DNA from: Solobacterium sp.
GTDB lineage: Bacteria > Bacillota_I > Bacilli_A > Erysipelotrichales > Erysipelotrichaceae
Assembly (NCBI GenBank): GCA_017432325.1
Contig: JAFRJJ010000023.1
Location: 1 to 64,000 of the forward strand
DNA: 64,000 nt
Reading direction: 5' to 3'
The notes under the pieces: generated by a model
What the model was told of the DNA's origin: nothing
The model's input: the letters and a program-made list of their open reading frames with translations, nothing else
The model's database searches: none
Made by a program: the position numbers and the translations under genes
Shown: positions 25,037-62,358 of the stretch, in pieces
Layout of the letters: the number at the start of each line of letters is the position of its first letter
Numbering within the stretch: the stretch's first letter is position 1

Positions 25037-25112
25037 GGGGTTTTAGCTCAGCTGGGAGAGCGTCTGGTTCGCAATCAGAAGGTCAGGGGTTCGAATCCCC
25101 CAAGCTCCACCA
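25037..25112 (+). tRNA. tRNA-Ala(CGC), reconstituted at attL
   Basis: A 76-nt tRNA with encoded CCA. The 7-bp acceptor stem contains the G3-U70 wobble pair that identifies alanine tRNAs. The anticodon loop UUCGCAA gives CGC (reads GCG). D-arm (AGCTCAGCTGGGAGAGC) and T-arm (GGTTCGAATCC) are standard. The prophage attachment core covers the 3' half, so bases after 25074 may be phage-derived, but they are identical to the original. Confidence 0.96.
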
Positions 25113-25113
25113 T
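25075..25113. repeat. attL, 39-bp prophage attachment core
   Basis: Identical to 57035-57073. It spans the 3' side of the tRNA anticodon stem through CCA plus one base. Sequence identity stops abruptly on both sides (A versus T before, A versus T after). Confidence 0.96.
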
Positions 25114-46081: not shown

Positions 46082-46513
46082 TTATATGTGATACAAAGGT
46101 ATCGTGCTCAGTATTGCCTGCACTCTGCGTCTGACTGTCTCTCTAGACATGAAGTGCTTATCGCAGATCTGCTCATATGTAGTGCATGGTGTCATATAGT
46201 ACTCGTGTATGAGCTGCTGATCTTCGTCGCTATATGCCAGCAGTGCATCGTCGATCTGACGCAAGTAAGTTCTTAATGCTGCTGCCTGAGCTTCCTTCTC
46301 ATCGCGTTTTTCCATGAGTACCAGAAGCTGATGCTCTCTGTCTGTATGGCCTCCTGGCACTCCGCCCCAGCTAACGCCGCGCACTCCGGCCATGCTGTAG
46401 TCGAGTACTGCGATGTCGTCATCAAGTTCTGCCAGCTCTCTGGCGTGGTACCTATATCCGCGCAGCATGCCATCTGCTGCTGCTATCCGGTCACGATCTG
46501 TCTGTGTAATCAT
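46082..46513 (-). CDS. Late transcriptional regulator (RinA/ArpU or sigma-70 region 4-like)
   Basis: A 143-aa protein. Its N-terminal part is helical ('RDRIAAADGMLRGYRYHAREL'), followed by 'LRTYLRQIDDALLAYSDEDQ' and a C-terminal HTH ('TYEQICDKHFMSRETVRRRVQAIL'). Proteins of this pattern stand directly upstream of the HNH-terminase genes in Bacillota phages and switch on late transcription. It has its own Shine-Dalgarno. It is the best candidate activator for the late operon. Confidence 0.75.
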   Translation of the reverse strand: MITQTDRDRIAAADGMLRGYRYHARELAELDDDIAVLDYSMAGVRGVSWGGVPGGHTDREHQLLVLMEKRDEKEAQAAALRTYLRQIDDALLAYSDEDQQLIHEYYMTPCTTYEQICDKHFMSRETVRRRVQAILSTIPLYHI

Positions 46514-46947: not shown

Positions 46948-47412
46948 CTATTCATTTTCTTTCGGCGGTTCAATGGGTTCTGCTGGCTTAATTGAGATAA
47001 AAATCCCAGACATTTTATAAAACTGTTTGTATAAACGAAGGTCTACGACGAATGAATCATCAGCAAAAAACCTGCAGCTCATGAGTGCATCCATGATCTC
47101 CTTGCTGCTGTTATCTAAGTCAGGGCGCGTAGTTTTCCATAACGCTGAGCCATCTTTTGCTAATTTTGCATCTGCCTTCCGGTATGGATAGTACAAGCCG
47201 ATTGTGACACTGAGTGGGCCCTCCAGCGGCGTTTTCGGTGCGTATGGCATGAAAGCTTTTTCCAAAATCTGGCGTGCATCCTGGAGCTTCTGATCACGGT
47301 ATACGCTGATCTTTCCGCGCTTGCTGATCGTTACTCTGTGATGATCCTGAGCGGTTACTGTAGGTGGTTTTGGCATCTCTGCGACGAAGGTAATCGATGA
47401 AGTGGGGCTCAT
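46948..47412 (-). CDS. RusA-family Holliday junction resolvase
   Basis: A 154-aa endonuclease that resolves recombination and replication intermediates. The RusA signature is 'TTRPDLDNSSKEIMDALMSC' followed by 'FADDSFVVDLRLYKQFYK' with the catalytic Asp residues; 'SVTIGLYYPYRKADAKL' precedes it. ATG 47412 overlaps the upstream TGA (ATGA) after a GGAGTGGG, which favours it over 47427. Size is normal for phage RusA. Confidence 0.9.
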   Translation of the reverse strand: MSPTSSITFVAEMPKPPTVTAQDHHRVTISKRGKISVYRDQKLQDARQILEKAFMPYAPKTPLEGPLSVTIGLYYPYRKADAKLAKDGSALWKTTRPDLDNSSKEIMDALMSCRFFADDSFVVDLRLYKQFYKMSGIFISIKPAEPIEPPKENE

Positions 47413-48197
47413 CCGACAAGCCCCCACTCCGCCATTTTTTCAAAACCGCCGAGCATTTTGATGTAGCGTCTTGCGGTCTCTACGATCTCACTGTACGGAA
47501 TTCCATTTACCTCGGTATCACCGATTGCACAGCACAACTCTACGGGTTTGCCGGTCTGCTGCGCTTTGAGCCAGGCATAGATGGTGATACTTACATCTGC
47601 TTTGCTGAGGTCTTTTCCATGAATGCCTCCGCCGGTAATCGAGTCTGCAAGATCCGATCCAAGCTTTCTGTTTGTTGCTCCTGAGTCTACCCAGATGCCG
47701 CCAGTCCAGGGCCCCAAAGGATTGATTTCTGCACCGGGGAAGTCCTTTGCCAGATCCTCTTTTTCGGCGCGACTCTGGCAGATGATCAGGCGCCTTTCGT
47801 CCAAAATATACTTTCCGTCTGATGGATATTTCTCGTAAATTTTATGTGCGATTGCGCAGAGCTGAGCCTGTTCAAACGTTACTGGAACCCCCCTAAAAAT
47901 TCCATTGTCTCCGCAGCGAAGCTCAAATTTCTGGTTCTCTGCCAGATGCTTGTCCTGGCGATGCTCATCGTAATGCAGAATAATATTCTCTCCCGTGATC
48001 CGCTTGCAGACTGCAAGGACTTTGTCGTATTCGAGCGGTGTGTCTGTCTCTGCGATAATGTACACGTGACCGTGACCAACGAGGACCTCAACCGCGATGT
48101 GCGGGTTTTCCGTCTCTGCGTATGCCAGGTCTACCAGGGCTCCGGCAATGCGGTCGGCGATCTTATCAGGGTGTGCGGGGTTTACTTTTTCGAACAT
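47409..48197 (-). CDS. Short S-adenosylmethionine synthetase (MetK-like), prophage-encoded
   Basis: A 262-aa protein clearly related to methionine adenosyltransferase (usually 380-400 aa). Visible MetK signatures are 'NPAHPDKIADRIAGALVDLA' (His, Asp, Lys of the ATP site), 'ELRCGDNGIFRGVP' (GAGDQG-type loop), 'VDSGATNRKLGSDLADSITG' and 'GGGIHGKDLSKADVS' (the GGGAFSGKDPTKVD loop). It lacks parts of the canonical central domain but keeps the catalytic positions. It could supply S-adenosylmethionine for the phage methyltransferase at 44207-45517. A Shine-Dalgarno (AAGGAGG) precedes it. Confidence 0.85.
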   Translation of the reverse strand: MFEKVNPAHPDKIADRIAGALVDLAYAETENPHIAVEVLVGHGHVYIIAETDTPLEYDKVLAVCKRITGENIILHYDEHRQDKHLAENQKFELRCGDNGIFRGVPVTFEQAQLCAIAHKIYEKYPSDGKYILDERRLIICQSRAEKEDLAKDFPGAEINPLGPWTGGIWVDSGATNRKLGSDLADSITGGGIHGKDLSKADVSITIYAWLKAQQTGKPVELCCAIGDTEVNGIPYSEIVETARRYIKMLGGFEKMAEWGLVG

Positions 48198-52942: not shown

Positions 52943-53494
52943 TTATGAGAGCCAGCCCCAGCGCCTGCCGGCCAGGATGTTGTAGACTGCAGGCGTGCTG
53001 CATCCGATGCGCTCTGCGATCATCCGTACCGGCATGCCTGCTGCATCCATGCGGCGGATTGCCTGCACTGCCTCCGGATCCATCTGCTGTGGACAGCGTC
53101 TCTGCAGCAATGCGTCCTGCGCATTTTCCGCCCGGCAGCCGTAGCACAAGTTGCTGGCCGTGTTATCTGTCGGTCTGCCATCGAGATGCCTGATCACTGC
53201 ACCTTCAGGCCGCTGTCCGATGTAAGTTGCCGCTACAAGAGCGTGTACAGGTTCCGGATATACACCGCCGTATGCATGCATGACCGAGACGTGCATGTAT
53301 CCGCATCCGTTTGGAGACGGCGTCAAAATGTGCCCAGAGCGGAGATTGATGACTCTGCCCCAATCGCTGACCATATACTGACCGGATCTCAATCCGTACC
53401 AGTCAGGTACCAGCCGCCATTCCTCACCGGAACTTCCATCGAAAAAGGCGCCTTCCAGCGCCTCTTCGATTGAATTGTAATAGTTCATCGTCAT
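52943..53494 (-). CDS. NUMOD4/HNH homing-type endonuclease
   Basis: A 183-aa protein. The N-terminal NUMOD4 motif is 'EWRLVPDWYGLRSGQYMVSDWGRV' (split blocks), followed by an HNH core 'VHALVAATYIGQRPEGAVIRHLDG' with 'DNTASNLCYG' and a C-terminal HTH ('DPEAVQAIRRMDAAGMPVRMIAERIGC'). These free-standing nucleases spread by cutting related phage DNA. It sits between the SSB-like gene (TAATG overlap) and the primase, followed by a terminator, as expected for an inserted cassette. Confidence 0.88.
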   Translation of the reverse strand: MTMNYYNSIEEALEGAFFDGSSGEEWRLVPDWYGLRSGQYMVSDWGRVINLRSGHILTPSPNGCGYMHVSVMHAYGGVYPEPVHALVAATYIGQRPEGAVIRHLDGRPTDNTASNLCYGCRAENAQDALLQRRCPQQMDPEAVQAIRRMDAAGMPVRMIAERIGCSTPAVYNILAGRRWGWLS

Positions 53495-54066
53495 TAAAAC
53501 GGTACCTCCTCGTCCGTGATGCTGAGGACATCATCCAGCGGGATGCCATCCTGCTGCTCCTGCTGCTGTACCGGCAGGCCTTCGAAGATTTCGTCAGTGT
53601 CGACCGACTCGAGATTCTCACCTTCTTCAGTCAAGATGAAACCGCTGAGCCCGAAGCTGACGCCCCTGTTGCCGCTGTTATCGTATGCGTACGGGCTAAG
53701 GACCAAATAGCCTTTGTTGCCGCTGTGGATCTTGCTTGTATCCGTCAGCTCGCGGCGATCCATTCCGTACAATTTAGGTTTCCTATTGCTGCTGGTATTA
53801 AGGAAGTAATATTCCGGTCCTACGTCCTCTTTTTCACTTCCGTCGCGCAGCGGCTTTCTGATGCCTGCGGGCCTCTTAGTGCCCCATCTGGCTGCTGCGC
53901 ACTCTGCATAAGCTGCTGACAGCTTGTCGAGGCTCTGTTTGTCCGTTTTTGGCAGAAGTGCCATCGTGCTGAATTTCATCTGTCCGTTCATGCTTTCTGC
54001 GGGCTGGATCAGGTGCTGATACCACAATGTGACTGGGCCGATAATAGTTACGATTGGTTTTGCCAT
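53494..54066 (-). CDS. DUF2815-type single-stranded DNA-binding protein
   Basis: A 190-aa protein of the DUF2815 family, considered T7 gp2.5-like single-strand binding proteins: 'PVTLWYQHLIQPAESMNGQM', 'STMALLPKTD', 'LVLSPYAYDNSGNRGVSFGLSG'. The acidic C-terminus ends in DEEVPF, resembling SSB tails that recruit replication partners. It has a strong Shine-Dalgarno (AAAGGAGAT) and heads the replication unit. Confidence 0.86.
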   Translation of the reverse strand: MAKPIVTIIGPVTLWYQHLIQPAESMNGQMKFSTMALLPKTDKQSLDKLSAAYAECAAARWGTKRPAGIRKPLRDGSEKEDVGPEYYFLNTSSNRKPKLYGMDRRELTDTSKIHSGNKGYLVLSPYAYDNSGNRGVSFGLSGFILTEEGENLESVDTDEIFEGLPVQQQEQQDGIPLDDVLSITDEEVPF

Positions 54067-54153: not shown

Positions 54154-54181
54154 AAAAAGGCACCCCGCCAGGGATGCCTTT
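54154..54181. terminator. Strong terminator upstream of the SSB-like gene
   Basis: AAAAAGGCA/TGCCTTT enclosing CCCC/GGG. A and T runs lie on both sides, so it may act in both directions. It stands between the repeat elements and the SSB-like gene, so read-through would have to be controlled. Confidence 0.8.
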
Positions 54182-54197: not shown

Positions 54198-54275
54198 TGT
54201 ACCCCTCATCTGGGGCGTTTTTACATTTTATAGAATACTACTGGAAAATCCCGGTTTTAATAGCATGTTTTGCCA
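54198..54275 (-). repeat. 79-bp control element, copy 1
   Basis: Read on the minus strand: block A (GGCAAAAcatGCTATTAAA), exactly 30 bases, then block B, a hairpin with a CCCC/GGGG stem whose outer arms are TGTA/TACA. A TATAAA box lies in the 30-base spacer. See the finding on this element. Confidence 0.75.
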
Positions 54276-54303
54276 TTCGGCCCTTCCTCAGCATTTTCTT
54301 TTG

Positions 54304-54383
54304 TGCGTTCCCCTCTTCCGGGGTTTCTTTGCAGTTTAATAATAATATAAGGATAGGATCCGATTTAATAGCATGTTTTGCCA
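54304..54383 (-). repeat. 79-bp control element, copy 2
   Basis: Same layout as copies 1 and 3: block A (GGCAAAAcatGCTATTAAA), 30 bases with TATATT/TATTAT, then a CCCC/GGGG hairpin with TGC/GCA outer pairing. Copies 1 and 2 are tandem, 28 bases apart. Confidence 0.75.
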
Positions 54384-54396
54384 ACTGACCATTTTG

Positions 54397-54654
54397 CTAT
54401 ATCCGGTATACGATTATCGGCGCTGAGCTGCCGTACATTGGTAGTGAGCCAAGAATGTTGTAATCAATCCACTCAGCCGCTTCATCAGAACTCATACCGT
54501 CATGCTCCATCAGTCCGGCAATCAGATCTTCGTACGCATATACGGCTCTGCCATCTTCCGTTACGCCCAGCAGCGCATCGTCGTATGCTGCGTCCGGCAT
54601 GTACACCACACCCTCATAGCCGGCATCCAGCAGCCTCTGTTCTTGTGTGCTCAT
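54397..54654 (-). CDS. Small conserved phage protein (85 aa)
   Basis: An 85-aa acidic protein ('LLDAGYEGVVYMPDAAYDDA', 'DGRAVYAYEDLIAGLMEHDG', 'DEAAEWIDYNILGSLPMYG', ending PIIVYRI). Proteins ending with this 'EAAEWIDYNxxxxxPY' pattern are common in early regions of Bacillota phages, but no function is known to me. A strong ribosome site (AAGGAAGGAGA) precedes the ATG. It is flanked by control-element copies 2 and 3 and by terminators, so it forms its own small unit. Confidence 0.8.
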   Translation of the reverse strand: MSTQEQRLLDAGYEGVVYMPDAAYDDALLGVTEDGRAVYAYEDLIAGLMEHDGMSSDEAAEWIDYNILGSLPMYGSSAPIIVYRI

Positions 54655-54711
54655 GCATGTCTCCTTCCTTATTTATATAGCGTCTCCTTACCTCCGCTAT
54701 TAAAATCAAAA

Positions 54712-54737
54712 GGGAATCCCAGCCGAATGAGATTCCC
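54712..54737 (-). terminator. Terminator between control element copy 3 and the 85-aa gene
   Basis: GGGAATC/GATTCCC with further inner pairing is followed on the minus strand by TTTTGATTTT. A transcript starting at copy 3 would meet it before reaching the 85-aa gene. Confidence 0.75.
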
Positions 54738-54798
54738 TATGCGCTTGCTATAGCGAAGAAAGGAGAGATGTGAACGCAGGTAATCATGGGACCTGCGC

Positions 54799-54877
54799 GT
54801 AAGTTACCCCTTCAGGGTTTCCTTACATGATATATAGTAGTACAGCCAAAAGTCCGATTTAATAGCGACTTTTGCCA
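54799..54877 (-). repeat. 79-bp control element, copy 3
   Basis: Block A is GGCAAAAgtcGCTATTAAA, then 30 bases with TATATAT, then a hairpin with GTAAG/CTTAC outer arms and a CCC/GGG inner stem. In this copy block A can also pair with the spacer (AAAAGTC/GACTTTT). Confidence 0.75.
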
Positions 54878-54913: not shown

Positions 54914-54936
54914 TAAGATTAATGCTCTTTGCCATT
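54914..54936 (-). repeat. Degenerate half copy of the control element
   Basis: Resembles block A only (minus strand AAATGGCAAAGAGCATTAAT). No CCCC/GGGG hairpin follows at the expected distance. Weak evidence. Confidence 0.35.
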
Positions 54937-54940
54937 TTCT

Positions 54941-54970
54941 TTTACAATATGTAGCAAAATATGATATGAT
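54941..54970 (+). promoter_or_regulatory. Rightward promoter of the structured RNA
   Basis: TTTACA (54941-54946), an 18-base spacer and TATGAT (54965-54970). The predicted start is near 54977. Confidence 0.6.
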
Positions 54971-54976
54971 AGATAT

Positions 54977-55062
54977 ATAGAGATTGAGGCAAAAAAAAGA
55001 CCTCCCAGACAGAAAGGACAGCAGTGGGCTTACTGCGTCTGCGCGCCAGAAGGGAGGTTTTT
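54977..55062 (+). ncRNA. Structured small RNA or attenuated leader
   Basis: A predicted transcript of about 86 bases. Nested stems are CCTCCC/GGGAGG (55001/55052), CAGAC/GTCTG (55006/55037) and GCAGT/ACTGC (55021/55032), followed by TTTTT, so it ends as an intrinsic terminator. It lies 100 bases before the plus-strand genes 55162-55799. It could be an independent sRNA, or a leader whose read-through controls those genes. A short frame from GTG 55024 (38 codons) also crosses it. Confidence 0.55.
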
Positions 55063-55099
55063 ATTGTTGTTCTTTGCCAATCGAATAGGTCGAATTTGA

Positions 55100-55848: not shown

Positions 55849-56910
55849 CTACTTTGCCTTATGAGTGTTTATAGCGTCTACGATGATCTGGTCCGTATCA
55901 TCGTACAGATGCGCATAGACCGCCAAGACGACCTCCACGGTATCGCCAATACGGTGCGCTATCTGCTGCGGAGTCAAATTGGTATTGTTAAACAGCCAGG
56001 ATACATGCGAGTGACGCAGACCATGCGCAGTGATCCGGGGCACTGTGGAATCCTTTTTGTGGATACGATCAAGTATCTTCCCTGTCCGGTTCTGAGATGC
56101 CATTTGCCTTTTATATCCAGTGATGTACCAGTAGTCAGTATAGCCTCGCAGCTTTCTTTCCTGATCCTGGAGATCAGACAGCACTGATACTAGCTCGTCG
56201 TCTATCGGTACGGTCATATCGCCACTTGAATTTTTGCGGCCTGGCAATATGGCGTGTCCCCCGTCTTCCACGACATGGCAGCGGATTGTGATTGTTTTTT
56301 GCTCTCTGGAGAAGTCCTGCCACTCAAGACCGCGAGCCTCACCACGCCGGATGCCGGTCCAGAATATCAGAGCAACGGTGGCGAGATTCTTCTGTGACTC
56401 TTTTACTAGCATTGCCCGCCGATAGTCATCCTCAGTCCAGAAGGCTTTTGGCTTTCTCGTGTGTTTAACCTTTGTGACGCGTTGGCATGGGTTCCGGTCA
56501 CAATATCCATGCAAAATTGCAAAATTGAAGATCACCCCGAGACGTGTTTTTACTTCATTTAATGAATTAGGCGAGTGACCCGCAGCTTTCAGGCGGCTTT
56601 GCAGCTGCTCAATATCCCCTGCCGTGTACTCCGTGATCACTTGATCTTCCAAATAAGGCGATATGCGACACCGCCACATCTGCTCCATTTTTGCAGCTGT
56701 CTGATTTTGGCCTTTGAGCTTATAATCTGCCATTTTCTCCAGGAATACTTCTGACAGAAGTCTTGATCCGGTTTCCAGCTTCTGACGCCTTTCTCGCTCC
56801 GCGGCAGACGCTGCTGCACGCGTCGGAAAGCCTCGGCCTTTGTATCGCTTTCCGTTTTTCTGGAACAGATAGTAATATGTCCCATTTGACTTATCTTTTT
56901 TTGTGGGCAT
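55849..56910 (-). CDS. int: Tyrosine-type site-specific integrase
   Basis: A 353-aa tyrosine recombinase. Residues 1-45 are the arm-binding domain ('GTYYYLFQKNGKRYKGRGF'), about 60-150 the core-binding SAM-like domain, and about 160-353 the catalytic domain with 'WTGIRRGEARGLEW' (Arg), 'ITAHGLRHSHVSWL' (HxxR) and 'VLAVYAHL' (nucleophilic Tyr). It integrates into the tRNA-Ala gene. ATG 56910 follows AAAGGAGGG; an open frame extends to 57000 without a better site. Arm-type repeats lie 37-58 bases upstream of the ATG, so the enzyme may repress its own gene. Confidence 0.95.
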   Translation of the reverse strand: MPTKKDKSNGTYYYLFQKNGKRYKGRGFPTRAAASAAERERRQKLETGSRLLSEVFLEKMADYKLKGQNQTAAKMEQMWRCRISPYLEDQVITEYTAGDIEQLQSRLKAAGHSPNSLNEVKTRLGVIFNFAILHGYCDRNPCQRVTKVKHTRKPKAFWTEDDYRRAMLVKESQKNLATVALIFWTGIRRGEARGLEWQDFSREQKTITIRCHVVEDGGHAILPGRKNSSGDMTVPIDDELVSVLSDLQDQERKLRGYTDYWYITGYKRQMASQNRTGKILDRIHKKDSTVPRITAHGLRHSHVSWLFNNTNLTPQQIAHRIGDTVEVVLAVYAHLYDDTDQIIVDAINTHKAK

Positions 56911-56946
56911 CTTTTGACCCTCCTTTTTTACGTTTTTTTTATGCAA

Positions 56947-56968
56947 ACTGCACCAAAAACTGCACCAG
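56947..56968. repeat. Arm-type integrase sites near attR (two copies)
   Basis: ACTGCACCAA (56947-56956) and ACTGCACCAG (56959-56968), the same 10-mer family as the three copies near attL. They lie between attR and the integrase gene. Confidence 0.7.
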
Positions 56969-57034
56969 TGTGAAATCTTTTGCACGGTTTGGAGAGGCAA
57001 AAAAGCCTTTATTTATGCTATATTTTGACTTTTT

Positions 57035-57073
57035 TCAGAAGGTCAGGGGTTCGAATCCCCCAAGCTCCACCAT
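57035..57073. repeat. attR, 39-bp prophage attachment core
   Basis: Identical to attL (25075-25113). It holds only the 3' half of the tRNA, so it is not a functional tRNA gene. Confidence 0.96.
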
Positions 57074-57412: not shown

Positions 57413-60256
57413 CTAATTACTGTTTTTCAGTGCATTATACCTTGCCAGGAAAGATACAATAGCAAGTCTGTTGCACGTATTCCACGGTCTGAACGTTCCG
57501 TCTGCCCAGCCGGTTGTAATATTGTTTTCTGACGCCCAGGAAATTGCTTTATCAAAATCAGCGTTTCCTGTCATGTCTGTGAATTCTGCCATCTTTGTTG
57601 GTGCAGGTTTTCCTGCCGCTCTCCACAGGAAGGTCATGACTGCCGCTCTGTTGCATGTATTCCAGGGGCGGAATGTGTTGTCTGCTTCCCAGCCCGTTGT
57701 AATATTGTTCTCCGCCGCCCAGGAAATTGCTTTATCAAAGTCAGCGTTTCCTGTCATGTCTTTGAACGTCGCCATCTTTGTCGGATCAGGTTTTCCGCTC
57801 AGTCTCCAAAGGAATGTTACAACTGCGGCACGGTTGCAGTTGGCTGAAGGTCGGAATGTGCCGTCATCATATCCACCGACAACTCCCCTTTCCACCATGT
57901 CATATACATAGTCGTAGTAGAACAAATCAGGATCTGTTACATCACTAAACAGTACTTTTATCGTACACTCCGCATGTAATCCTCCGGCTGTGTTTGCTGT
58001 GATCGTTGCGGTTCCGGGTGCTTTCCCTGTCACTTTTCCTGTTCTGCTTACTGCTGCAATACTTTCATCTGAAGAAGTCCATGTAATTGCTTTGTCTTCG
58101 GTTGCGTCTGCCGGATCATACTTAACACTTAATGTTTCTGTTTCCCCAATCACAACATTCATTGATTCACTATTGAATGATATGGATTCCAGAGGTACTT
58201 TAACAGTCACCTTGCAGGTGGCTGTCTTCGTCCCGACCAATGCAGTGATCGTTGTTGTTCCCGGACCGACTGCCGTGACTTTTCCGTTTGATACTGTTGC
58301 AACTGACTTATTACTGGATGTCCATGTAACTGTTTTGTCGTCTGTTGTATCTGCCGGTGTATACGTAACCTCCAGTGTCTCGCTCTTCCCTTTATCAAGA
58401 TTAAGAGATGATTTATTCAGTGCTATGGATTGCAACTGAATGATTTTTTGATCAACTGTCACATTTAGAGCGATGCTTCCTTTTAATTCATGGAATACGC
58501 CTTCATAAATGATTGATGCTGTTCCGGGATTTTTCGCAATGATCTGATCACCGATGACCACAGCAACATTTTCATTACTGCTTCTCACATTATTTACCGT
58601 CCCGGCAAAAATAGAGCTTTCACTGTTGGTATAAAAATAAGCCTCTGCTGAAGGAAGTTCTATCGACTCTCCCTTGTACAATCTGACTTCAGGCGAATCG
58701 TTATATATGTCATCGTTGAATTTCAAATAAAGTGACACTGTTTCTCTGTCAACATACACAGTATGTTCTTCTTCTGTATCCATATCTGTAATAGGAGTTT
58801 GAGTGACTATTTTATTATCAAATTCCTGTATCCAGTATTTTTTACCATTGTATTCAATACACGCCAGTCCAACGGCCATTGAATTCCTGTCAAGCATATC
58901 GCGCCTTTGCATCTGCCCGCTGTAAGATGAATTGTCTGCTTTCCAATATTCAAAAGCTTCTTCTGCAGTATCAAATCCATAACACATATTTTCATTCACA
59001 CCCGGTTCCATCAGCCTGGTATTGAATCTGCCGTCCGGAGTGCAATGTGTAATCGGATCATAGTATGAAATAATCTCTTTTGCCCGTGTCATTGCAAGGT
59101 ATTCCAGGTAGTAGTCGTATGTTAAAGAAGATACATTATAATACTGCTTTTCTGTATTGGAACTGTTCCATGCCCATGCTTCATCACCGGTACGGAAATC
59201 ATTGACCATATCAAACATTGATCTGGCTTCATCCTGATGATATACTGCGTGAATTGTAACCTGGAAGACTTTGTTTTCACTTTCAACAAAGCTGTGATCC
59301 CCTGCGGCCCATCTGCTGATACGGTCAATCATCCTGCTTTTATCGCATATACCGTTGCATCCGCTGATAAACTGCCGTTCTTCATCCATCAAAAAGGAAA
59401 CAGGATACAGTTTCCCGTTCAGTCCATATTCGTTAAAGAGCTGATATGCATATGAATAATTGGCATTGTAATTATCAGAAACCATAAGGTTCGGATGCCC
59501 TGCGATTACATCGGCCAATAATGACTCATGTTTTTCCTCTGTAAGCATTAAAACCGGTTTCAGAGATATGCCGGAATCAATCAGAGCTTCGCATTCAGTT
59601 ACCAGCTGTTCCGTATATTCAACCTGATTGCTTCCGAAAAAGATAAGCAACAGCATATCTTCACTGAAATCATCCGGCTTATAGGTAATTTCTCCCACTT
59701 TAATATCGACATCAAACGTGACGATTCTTTCGTTATAGTCAGGCAGATCATCCTGCAGAACATTATATGTATCTGTCTCTCCAAAACCTTCTTCTTCAAT
59801 CATCGGTACTGCGGGATCCTCATCGGGTTCCTCGTTCTCATCCGCTGTTTCAGACGATGATTCCTCTGCCTCATACTGTCCGTCAGCCGGAATCAGATCA
59901 TCTGCTTTTTCCGGATCAGATACTGCTTCTGACTCTGAATCATCTCTCTCAGTATCAGTTTCTTCATCTTCCAAAGGAACGTTTTCCTCAGCCTCAGCTT
60001 CATCCGGTTCAGAAATGATTTCTTCCTGATTCTCTTCTGTAACTTCATCTGTATTTACAGCAGATCCATCTTCTGTATGATCAGTATCAGTTACAGGTTC
60101 CGTTTCTTCGTTTGCTTCTTCAGGCGGAATCTCTTCGCTCACTTCAGTGACATGATCTGTTTCTGCTTCAAAGTCAGTTTCTTCCGCTGCTGCCGGGATC
60201 ACGTTTAACATCAGTAATACCGCAAACAACAATGTCATTGTTTTTTTCAGCTTCAT
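57413..60256 (-). CDS. Secreted surface protein: CAP, Big2 and SLH domains
   Basis: A 947-aa exported protein. Signal peptide at residues about 1-25 ('TMTLLFAVLLMLNVIPAAA'). Residues 26-150 are an acidic Glu/Asp/Thr-rich linker. About 170-320 form a possible thioredoxin-like fold with a CNGIC motif. About 330-470 match a CAP/SCP domain ('MFDMVNDFRTGDEAWAWN', 'ENMCYGFDTAEEAFEYW'). Two Big2 domains follow ('VTYTPADTTDDKTVTWTSS') and three SLH-like repeats end the protein ('FRPWNTCNRAAVMTFLWR'). The SLH part should anchor it to the wall. ATG 60256 follows GGAGATGG. Confidence 0.88.
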   Translation of the reverse strand: MKLKKTMTLLFAVLLMLNVIPAAAEETDFEAETDHVTEVSEEIPPEEANEETEPVTDTDHTEDGSAVNTDEVTEENQEEIISEPDEAEAEENVPLEDEETDTERDDSESEAVSDPEKADDLIPADGQYEAEESSSETADENEEPDEDPAVPMIEEEGFGETDTYNVLQDDLPDYNERIVTFDVDIKVGEITYKPDDFSEDMLLLIFFGSNQVEYTEQLVTECEALIDSGISLKPVLMLTEEKHESLLADVIAGHPNLMVSDNYNANYSYAYQLFNEYGLNGKLYPVSFLMDEERQFISGCNGICDKSRMIDRISRWAAGDHSFVESENKVFQVTIHAVYHQDEARSMFDMVNDFRTGDEAWAWNSSNTEKQYYNVSSLTYDYYLEYLAMTRAKEIISYYDPITHCTPDGRFNTRLMEPGVNENMCYGFDTAEEAFEYWKADNSSYSGQMQRRDMLDRNSMAVGLACIEYNGKKYWIQEFDNKIVTQTPITDMDTEEEHTVYVDRETVSLYLKFNDDIYNDSPEVRLYKGESIELPSAEAYFYTNSESSIFAGTVNNVRSSNENVAVVIGDQIIAKNPGTASIIYEGVFHELKGSIALNVTVDQKIIQLQSIALNKSSLNLDKGKSETLEVTYTPADTTDDKTVTWTSSNKSVATVSNGKVTAVGPGTTTITALVGTKTATCKVTVKVPLESISFNSESMNVVIGETETLSVKYDPADATEDKAITWTSSDESIAAVSRTGKVTGKAPGTATITANTAGGLHAECTIKVLFSDVTDPDLFYYDYVYDMVERGVVGGYDDGTFRPSANCNRAAVVTFLWRLSGKPDPTKMATFKDMTGNADFDKAISWAAENNITTGWEADNTFRPWNTCNRAAVMTFLWRAAGKPAPTKMAEFTDMTGNADFDKAISWASENNITTGWADGTFRPWNTCNRLAIVSFLARYNALKNSN

Positions 60257-60288
60257 CTTGTCCATCTCCTATATGTGTTGAGAATCTG

Positions 60289-62175
60289 TCAGTTCATACT
60301 GCTGTATCTTGAAAGGAATGATACGATTGCAAGTCTGTTGCAGGTGTTCCACGGGCGGAATGTTCCGTCTGCCCATCCGGTGGTGATTCCGTTTGCTACA
60401 CCCCAGCTGATTGCTTTGTCAAAGTCAGCGTTTCCTGTCATATCGCTGAATGAACTGTCGATCTCTGTTTCGGGTGCTCCCGCATATCTCCACAGGAATG
60501 TCATGATTGCTGCCCTGTTGCAGGTATTCCATGGACGGAATGTTCCATCTGCCCATCCTGTAGTGATCCCCTGCTCTGCTGCCCAGCTGATGGCCATATC
60601 AAAGTCAGGATTCCCGGTCATATCTTTAAACTCTGCCGTTGTTTCCGGTAAAGGCTTTCCGTTCAGTCTCCACAGGAACGTCACGACTGCCGCTCTGTTG
60701 CACGGATTGTACGGGCGGAATGTACCGTCTGTATATCCTCCTACTACACCCATGTCTGTCATGTCATATACATAGCTGTAGAAAAATTCACGGGGATCTG
60801 TAACATCTGTAAACTGGACTCTGAGATCACAGGATTCCGATTGATCACCGGCAACAGCTATCACAGTCGCTGTTCCGAGACCGACAGCAGTGACTTTTCC
60901 GTTTTCCACAATTACGACCGAGCTGTCTGTTGAGACCCATTTGATTTCGTGATCTGAAGGAAGCTGTGAAGGTTTCAATATTGCCTGATCACCAAGGGGT
61001 ATTGCTGCCGAAGAAGAATCCATTGATATTTCCTGAGGTTTATTCCATGTTTTCCATGTTATGGTTCCTGAATAATTCTGACGCTTATCAGCTGTCCATG
61101 TCGTATTGTCTTTCGGATAGTAGGCTGTGAAAGTATCTTCACCAAATGCACTCCCTTTAATATCAGGAGCATTCCCGTAAAAGACCATTTTTTTCAGATT
61201 GTAGCAATAGGTAAAAGCGCTGTTATCGATCAATTTTACCGATAACGGAATATTGATTTCAGAGAGAGAACTGCATTTAAAGAATGCACCGTCTCCGATG
61301 GATTCCAGTCCTTCCGGAAGCACAACTGTTTCAAGTCTTCTGCAATCTGAAAATATGCCGTTCGCCAATGATGTTACCTGTTCCGGTATTTTTGCGTTTC
61401 TCAGTCCCGAACATTCCAAGAATGCGGCATCCTCGATTATTGAAACATTCGAGGGGAGAAAGTCAATATCTGTAAGGCTGTAGCAACGGTAAAATGCCAG
61501 CATTTCAACTGTTTCCACGTCCGGAGATACAACTACATCTCTTAAGCTGCTGCATTCAAAAAATGTTCCGCGGGGAATAATCGTTATATTTTCGGATAGT
61601 ACTGCCCTCTGCAGATTTGAACATCCCTCAAACAGTCCTACACCGATATTGTTCACAGTATCAGGAAGCGTTACACTGTACAGATCTGTATTCTCCAGGA
61701 ATGTTTCATCTTCCATATCCGTAACTTCCAGTCCGTCTATGATCGATGGAACATCCAGATCATGATCTGTCCCATGATATCCGGTAATCGTTATCGTTCC
61801 CCGGTCATTTTTATAATAATCAAAGTCACTTACAGCACTGAGGTATACCTCGGTGTTATCCGAACCTGTATCTTCCTCTTCAGCAGATAACCCTGCCATA
61901 TGATCAGGTTCTTGTTCCTCATATTCCATGCTCAGACTGATTTCTTCTTCAGAGTCAGCAGTATTCTCCGCTGCTTCAGCCTCGTCGGTAATCTCTGTAT
62001 ATTCGGTATTTTGCTGTGGATCTTCAGTCTCCATGGGTGTTTCAGAAGATAATTCCTCCTGCTCTATGGTAACTTCCTCTTGAAACTCATCATCAGTATC
62101 TGTTTCTTCCGCACTGACCTGTATCAGTGACATAGCCATAGCAGCTGCACACAATGTTTTGACGATTATCTTCAT
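60289..62175 (-). CDS. Secreted surface protein: BspA-like LRR, Big2 and SLH domains
   Basis: A 628-aa exported protein. Signal peptide 'MKIIVKTLCAAAMAMSLIQVSA', then an acidic linker of about 90 residues. About 125-340 are LRR_5 repeats ('FLENTDLYSVTLPDTVNNIG', 'FFECSSLRDVVVSPDVETVE', 'FSDCRRLETVVLPEGLESIG'). A Big2-like domain follows ('KWVSTDSSVVIVENGKVTAV') and then three SLH-like repeats. LRR_5 proteins bind host or bacterial surfaces. ATG 62175 follows GGAAGGTG; TATAAT at 62206-62201 with TGT in front gives a leader of about 20 bases. Tandem with the preceding SLH protein. Confidence 0.88.
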   Translation of the reverse strand: MKIIVKTLCAAAMAMSLIQVSAEETDTDDEFQEEVTIEQEELSSETPMETEDPQQNTEYTEITDEAEAAENTADSEEEISLSMEYEEQEPDHMAGLSAEEEDTGSDNTEVYLSAVSDFDYYKNDRGTITITGYHGTDHDLDVPSIIDGLEVTDMEDETFLENTDLYSVTLPDTVNNIGVGLFEGCSNLQRAVLSENITIIPRGTFFECSSLRDVVVSPDVETVEMLAFYRCYSLTDIDFLPSNVSIIEDAAFLECSGLRNAKIPEQVTSLANGIFSDCRRLETVVLPEGLESIGDGAFFKCSSLSEINIPLSVKLIDNSAFTYCYNLKKMVFYGNAPDIKGSAFGEDTFTAYYPKDNTTWTADKRQNYSGTITWKTWNKPQEISMDSSSAAIPLGDQAILKPSQLPSDHEIKWVSTDSSVVIVENGKVTAVGLGTATVIAVAGDQSESCDLRVQFTDVTDPREFFYSYVYDMTDMGVVGGYTDGTFRPYNPCNRAAVVTFLWRLNGKPLPETTAEFKDMTGNPDFDMAISWAAEQGITTGWADGTFRPWNTCNRAAIMTFLWRYAGAPETEIDSSFSDMTGNADFDKAISWGVANGITTGWADGTFRPWNTCNRLAIVSFLSRYSSMN

Positions 62176-62358
62176 ATTAAAAACACCTTCCATGTTATCT
62201 ATTATAACAATTCTTCTGTCAGTCATTTTAACTTTTCGTCGATTATGTATGATTACCTGTCAAAACAGTATTCACTGCCCAACGCAGTGTTTTTCATACC
62301 GGTAGGACAGGGCATATTTGCCATATAACGTTGTTATCAACGTTTAAGGCGTTATAAA

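What the first reader, a model, noticed from the sequence alone, without database searches (positions are those of the whole stretch)
54198..54877. Three copies of an undescribed 79-bp element with exactly constant spacing
Seen directly on the minus strand: block A (GGCAAAA, three variable bases, GCTATTAAA), then exactly 30 bases in all three copies, then block B, a short hairpin with a C-run/G-run inner stem and differing outer arms (TGTA/TACA, TGC/GCA, GTAAG/CTTAC). The outer-arm differences are compensatory, which points to RNA pairing. The 30-base spacer holds a -10-like box in each copy (TATAAA, TATATT/TATTAT, TATATAT) but no common -35. Inference: phage-specific promoters in which block A replaces the -35 as an activator site and the RNA starts with the hairpin, each followed by a terminator (54712-54737, 54154-54181). 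An antitermination or attenuation switch is the most attractive reading. The copies flank the 85-aa gene and lie at the boundary between lysogeny and replication genes.
Basis: partly seen in the sequence, partly recalled or inferred. Interest (0 to 1): 0.75.

Follow-up and report, generated by a model that had tools for sequence, protein, structure and literature searches.

The report
Triplicated switch element in a prophage
A dormant virus in a bacterium carries three copies of a ~79-bp control element (a fixed 19-base tag, 30 bases of free sequence rich in A/T at its far end, then a small hairpin) at the start of its lytic gene block; they are probably switched-on-demand promoters with a hairpin-tagged leader, but nothing like them was found elsewhere and the protein that reads them is unknown.

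Summary
Three minus-strand copies of GGCAAAAnnnGCTATTAAA (54876-54858, 54382-54364, 54274-54256) are each followed, at exactly the same distance (30 bases to a shared TG, 40 to CCC), by a C-run/G-run hairpin. Spacers are only 12-17/30 alike, so tag and distance are conserved, not a recent duplication. The shared hairpin position has P~1e-4 in shuffles. New: the 15 bases just upstream of each hairpin are 39/45 A/T (P~4e-4). The elements sit at the head of the ~29-kb lytic operon of a 32-kb prophage, with a terminator between them and each downstream ORF. A -10 box at a fixed position is not supported (P~0.11); outer-arm pairing exceeds chance (P~8e-4) but folds only in copy 1. No copy was found in viral, phage or plasmid collections or related genomes, so covariation cannot be tested. 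A nut/boxA reading fails against the host genus' rRNA boxA; put needs two stem-loops, not seen. Best reading (0.45): activator-positioned promoters with hairpin leaders and readthrough-dependent terminators. Rivals: repressor operators, RNA antitermination elements, replication origin. A weaker tag copy lies inside the divergent promoter, suggesting one regulator for both directions.

The parts
54858..54876 (-). copy 1 block A (GGCAAAAGTCGCTATTAAA)
54828..54857 (-). copy 1 spacer, 30 bases, last 15 bases 12/15 A/T
54799..54826 (-). copy 1 hairpin GTAAGgaaACCCTgaaGGGGTaaCTTAC, -9.4 kcal/mol, outer arm folds
54364..54382 (-). copy 2 block A (GGCAAAACATGCTATTAAA)
54334..54363 (-). copy 2 spacer, 30 bases, last 15 bases 14/15 A/T
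54304..54333 (-). copy 2 hairpin, CCCC-GGAAGA-GGGG core, 3-bp outer arm TGC/GCA not in the MFE fold
54256..54274 (-). copy 3 block A (GGCAAAACATGCTATTAAA)
54226..54255 (-). copy 3 spacer, 30 bases, last 15 bases 13/15 A/T
54198..54225 (-). copy 3 hairpin, CCCC-AGATGA-GGGG core, outer arm TGTA/TACA not in the MFE fold
54711..54738 (-). terminator T1, 60 nt after copy 1 hairpin, before the 85-aa gene
54154..54181 (-). terminator T2, 16 nt after copy 3 hairpin, before the ssDNA-binding gene
   Evidence: read from sequence
54397..54654 (-). 85-aa acidic gene (phrog_13182, unknown function); relatives in 8 viral contigs without the element
53494..54066 (-). Gp2.5-like ssDNA-binding protein (PF10991), first replication gene after T2
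54941..54970 (+). divergent sigma-70 promoter TTTACA-18-TATGAT towards a short terminated leader and two + strand genes
54952..54971 (+). best non-copy match to block A in the 64-kb window (TAGCAAAATATGATATGATA), inside the divergent + promoter
54996..55063 (+). hairpin-terminator ending the ~90-nt + strand leader RNA

Best explanation
The three copies are activator-positioned phage promoters for the leftward lytic operon. A DNA-binding regulator (not identified) recognises block A; it holds RNA polymerase at a fixed distance, melting occurs in the A/T-rich stretch just upstream of the hairpin, and the transcript starts at or a few bases into the hairpin, so each RNA begins with a small C-run/G-run stem-loop. 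Each RNA then meets a terminator (T1 before the 85-aa gene, T2 before the replication genes), so full expression of the operon needs readthrough, in which the 5' hairpin and/or the block-A protein may take part. A weaker block-A copy inside the divergent + promoter suggests the same regulator also turns the lysogeny-side transcript down. Shown: conservation, spacing, A/T-rich stretch, hairpins, terminator positions. Inferred: promoter activity, start point, regulator, readthrough.
For: Exact tag with free spacer sequence (12, 12 and 17 of 30 alike) but invariant distance: a fixed length of arbitrary sequence is what DNA geometry between a bound protein and polymerase demands. A/T-rich 39/45 just upstream of the hairpin. 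The ~29-kb leftward operon has no good sigma-70 promoter on its strand in the control region. Replication genes follow directly. The 4th-best block A match in 64 kb lies within the divergent + promoter (chance of falling in the ~850-bp non-coding control region about 1%).
Against: No -10 hexamer at a common offset (best 12/18, reached by 11% of shuffles). Terminators directly after the supposed promoters would block them unless a second mechanism exists. No regulator gene could be tied to block A; no CI-like repressor was recognised in the genes scanned. No relative carries the element, so nothing confirms the geometry.
Confidence: 0.45

Rival explanations
1. Operators of the prophage repressor: block A is bound in the lysogen to silence leftward transcription; the hairpin is a separate leader or stability element.
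For: Tag clustered in the control region only, in three strong copies plus one weak copy over the divergent promoter. SPbeta offers a precedent: a 15-bp repeated element later shown to be the site of the master repressor MrpR (PMC10516654).
Against: A repressor site does not need the same exact distance to a hairpin three times; no leftward sigma-70 promoter overlaps the copies.
Confidence: 0.2
2. RNA antitermination elements (put-, conAn2- or nut-like): the whole ~79 nt acts as RNA in a transcript from further upstream and lets polymerase pass T1 and T2.
For: Every copy lies upstream of a terminator that precedes an ORF; outer-arm pairing above chance (P~8e-4); copy 1 core CCCUGAAGGGG resembles the lambda boxB stem by eye (recalled, not tested); a small protein is encoded between the copies, as in bipartite conAn (PMC8955417).
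Against: An exact 30-nt unpaired spacer has no obvious reason in RNA; block A does not match the host genus rrn boxA TCTTTGAAAACT; putRNA is two stem-loops of ~70 nt (PMC9378689), but only copy 1 has a 5' stem by inspection; the 85-aa protein is acidic, unlike N; few other terminators on the operon strand.
Confidence: 0.2
3. Replication origin: block A copies are initiator sites, the A/T-rich stretch melts, the hairpin is a priming signal for the NrS-1-like primase.
For: Direct neighbourhood of ssDNA-binding protein, primase (PF22763) and VapE helicase genes; A/T-rich stretch at a fixed distance from a repeated tag.
Against: Copies are 494 and 108 bp apart with a gene between, not an iteron array; GC skew does not change sign cleanly at the locus; all copies in the orientation of leftward transcription.
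Confidence: 0.1
4. The hairpins work on the + strand as weak terminators against antisense transcripts; block A is unrelated to them.
For: On the + strand each hairpin is followed by a T-rich tail (at least 5 T in 8), chance about 0.003 for all three.
Against: Stems of only 4-5 pairs; no + strand gene lies upstream; does not explain the tag at fixed distance.
Confidence: 0.05

Closest known systems
Lambdoid Q / qut late promoters (21Q, lambda Q)
   Same: Promoter-linked DNA site for a phage protein, start-proximal signal, terminator just downstream, long operon beyond it (PMC6606751)
   Different: QBE lies between -35 and -10, with a -10-like pause in the first transcribed bases; here the tag lies at or upstream of the -35 position, there is a hairpin, three copies in the early region; no Q homologue tied to it (the RinA-like protein at 46085-46513 has only weak Q/sigma-R4 similarity)
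HK022 put sites
   Same: Two copies of a ~70-nt element downstream of early promoters, terminators beyond (PMC9378689)
   Different: put has two long stem-loops and works with RNA alone; here one short hairpin and an unpaired tag
conAn bipartite antitermination of pLS20
   Same: Gram-positive mobile element, small protein plus leader RNA at the start of a long operon (PMC8955417)
   Different: More than 20 internal terminators there; few on this operon strand; homology of the 85-aa protein to ConAn1 not tested
SPbeta repeated element / MrpR; Cluster K SAS/ESAS repeats
   Same: Phage-specific short repeats confined to regulatory gaps, some with inverted repeats (PMC10516654; PMC3203893)
   Different: No fixed tag-to-hairpin distance described there in the passages I read; SAS overlaps ribosome binding sites, which block A does not

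Membership tests
Q-type (qut) antitermination promoter | Q-binding element between -35 and -10 of a sigma-70 promoter | tested here: inconclusive
   No common -10 and no scored leftward promoter at the copies, so the place of block A relative to a core promoter cannot be fixed
Q-type (qut) antitermination promoter | Terminator downstream of the site, before the operon | tested here: met
   T1 60 nt after copy 1, T2 122 and 16 nt after copies 2 and 3
Q-type (qut) antitermination promoter | A Q protein encoded by the phage | tested here: inconclusive
   Only the RinA-family protein at 46085-46513; PF06530 E=0.06, RinA 24.8 bits below the 31.9 cut-off
HK022 put RNA | Two stem-loops in ~70 nt | tested here: not met
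   One hairpin shared; a 5' stem (CAAAAGTC/GACTTTTG) is visible by reading the sequence in copy 1 only
lambda-type nut site | boxA matching the host NusB/S10 target | tested here: not met
   Host genus rrn leaders and spacers carry TCTTTGAAAAC; block A is YGCTATTAAA
lambda-type nut site | Arg-rich N-like protein | tested here: not met
   The neighbouring 85-aa protein is acidic; no family match except phrog_13182
sigma-54 promoter | -24 GG and -12 GC elements with their fixed spacing (consensus from general knowledge) | tested here: not met
   TGGCA and GC are two bases too close in all copies (sequence)
Known Rfam RNA family | Covariance-model score above gathering cut-off | tested here: not met
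   Only one tRNA in the window
conAn | ConAn1 protein homologue | not tested
   No ConAn1 sequence compared

The most novel reading that the evidence does not exclude
A new kind of early phage switch in which one protein site sets both where transcription starts and whether it ignores the next terminator: a tag-30-hairpin unit that acts as promoter and loading site for a readthrough complex, used three times at the head of one operon.
Probability: 0.15. Interest if true: 0.7.

Novelty: new variant of a known kind. Interest (0 to 1): 0.42.

Why it matters
If the geometry is functional, it gives a compact, testable model for early control in prophages of this bacterial order, in a phage where no CI-like repressor was recognised. 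It also gives a defined bait (block A) to find the missing regulator. If it turns out to be an ordinary operator set, it is still the map of the lysis-lysogeny switch of this phage.

Tried and rejected
Exact and relaxed pattern scans in IMG/VR and GTDB genome contigs gave only chance hits without a matching tag-hairpin unit. <=3 mismatch scan of 316 genomes of the order: no second family member. DNA similarity to phages and plasmids: none. Related replication modules in 20 prophage regions: no repeated tag-hairpin unit at a fixed distance except coding repeats. Relatives of the 85-aa gene lack the element. Structure model of the 85-aa protein is fair (best model pLDDT 87, others 58-74) but has no significant PDB match. 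Small + strand RNA pairing with the leftward leader: the long duplexes from duplexfold are unspecific, with only 7-8-nt exact complements. Competing antiterminator folds: none. boxA, sigma-54 and put readings: see membership test. A covariance model was not built: three sequences from one locus give no independent covariation.

Full report
Setting. The window carries a complete-looking prophage bounded by a 39-bp direct repeat, 25075-25113 in the tRNA-Ala gene and 57035-57073 at the right end, with an integrase at 55849-57000. From about 54.7 kb to 25.9 kb nearly all genes run leftwards: an 85-aa protein, a Gp2.5-like ssDNA-binding protein, HNH protein, NrS-1-like primase, VapE helicase, RusA, a RinA-like late regulator, methylase, terminase, then structural genes. 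To the right two unknown genes run rightwards from a good sigma-70 promoter (54941-54970) through a ~90-nt leader that ends in a strong terminator. The finding lies at the head of the leftward operon. No CI-like repressor was recognised in the genes I scanned.

The observation. The three block A copies are exact at all 16 fixed positions. The hairpin core CCC begins exactly 59 bases after the first G of block A in each copy. In shuffles of the three downstream stretches a GC-rich hairpin shares one offset in 1 of 10,000. The spacers share only 12, 12 and 17 of 30 bases between copies; copies 2 and 3, with identical block A, share 12. Tag and distance have been kept while the sequence between drifted; recent duplication does not explain that. 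I correct three details: total length is 77-79; copy 1's strict outer arm begins a base later than in the others; the -10-like boxes lie at different offsets and at the best common offset do no better than 11% of shuffles.

What the pairing shows. RNAfold pairs the outer arm only in copy 1. With three copies from one locus there is no independent covariation. On the + strand each hairpin has a T-rich tail; this may simply mirror the A-rich 5' side of the minus-strand loop.

What points to DNA geometry. A 30-base stretch of free sequence but fixed length is more natural between a bound protein and polymerase than in single-stranded RNA (inference). The 15 bases before the hairpin are 39/45 A/T, P about 4e-4 against local non-coding windows; I examined this after seeing the sequence. 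The fourth-best match to block A in the whole window, TAGCAAAATATGATATGATA, lies at +54952-54971 between the -35 and over the -10 of the divergent promoter; its score (13.8) is not far above the next match (13.2), so the argument is one of place, about 1% by chance for the non-coding control region. Together these favour a regulator that binds block A, drives leftward transcription from the hairpin start and covers the rightward promoter.

The terminators. T1 and T2 lie between elements and ORFs (60, 122 and 16 nt after the hairpins). Simple promoters would run straight into them. Either they leak, or readthrough is part of the system. I found no alternative fold that could undo them: blocking the T1 or T2 stem costs 11-12 kcal/mol. 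So a classic attenuator is unlikely; protein- or RNA-mediated readthrough remains open. There are few other terminators on the operon strand, so a need for long-range antitermination is not evident.

Comparison with known systems. nut: the host genus' rrn leaders carry TCTTTGAAAAC as boxA, unlike block A; rejected. put: two stem-loops of ~70 nt (PMC9378689); not met. Q/qut: architecture of DNA site, start-proximal signal and terminator is similar (PMC6606751), membership undecided. conAn (PMC8955417): small protein plus leader RNA at the head of a long operon; similar outline, homology untested. SPbeta repeats and MrpR (PMC10516654) and cluster K SAS repeats (PMC3203893) show that phage-wide tags can be regulator sites or remain unexplained.

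Distribution. No copy was found in IMG/VR, in GTDB species genomes (patterns need exact letters at the chosen positions), in 316 genomes of the order with up to three mismatches, or among deposited phages and plasmids. The closest replication proteins are only about 35-43% alike, so no close relative of this phage was available; uniqueness may reflect sampling.

Verdict. Real, selected, and unexplained in detail; promoter reading most likely, operators and RNA antitermination next. Not categorically new on present evidence.

Noticed in passing
window 54974-55066 (+): A predicted ~90-nt RNA from a 10/12 sigma-70 promoter with TG extension, ending in a strong hairpin terminator (-29.8 kcal/mol), between integrase side and lytic operon; could be a small regulatory RNA or an attenuated leader.
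   Followed up: partly
window 54918-54934 and 55063-55079: Two further TGGCAAA half-tags (minus strand) in similar 17-base contexts (ATTAATGCTCTTTGCCA / ATTGTTGTTCTTTGCCA on the + strand) flank the divergent promoter and its leader.
   Followed up: partly
window 54655-54830 (-): The copy 1 leader folds so that TCTCCTTTCTTC pairs with the GAAGGAGA ribosome site of the 85-aa gene in the minimum-energy fold, with a second hairpin CGCAGGT/ACCTGCG.
   Followed up: no
window 47409-48197 (-): Phage gene with an S-adenosylmethionine synthetase N-terminal domain (PF00438, phrog_1569) inside the early operon, not far from a DNA methylase.
   Followed up: no
window 25075-25113 and 57035-57073: 39-bp att repeats in the tRNA-Ala 3' end define a 32-kb prophage; no CI-like repressor was recognised in the genes scanned.
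   Followed up: partly
window 57413-62226 (-): Two large host surface-type proteins with repeated S-layer-like GWADGTFRPWNTCNR motifs next to the prophage.
   Followed up: no
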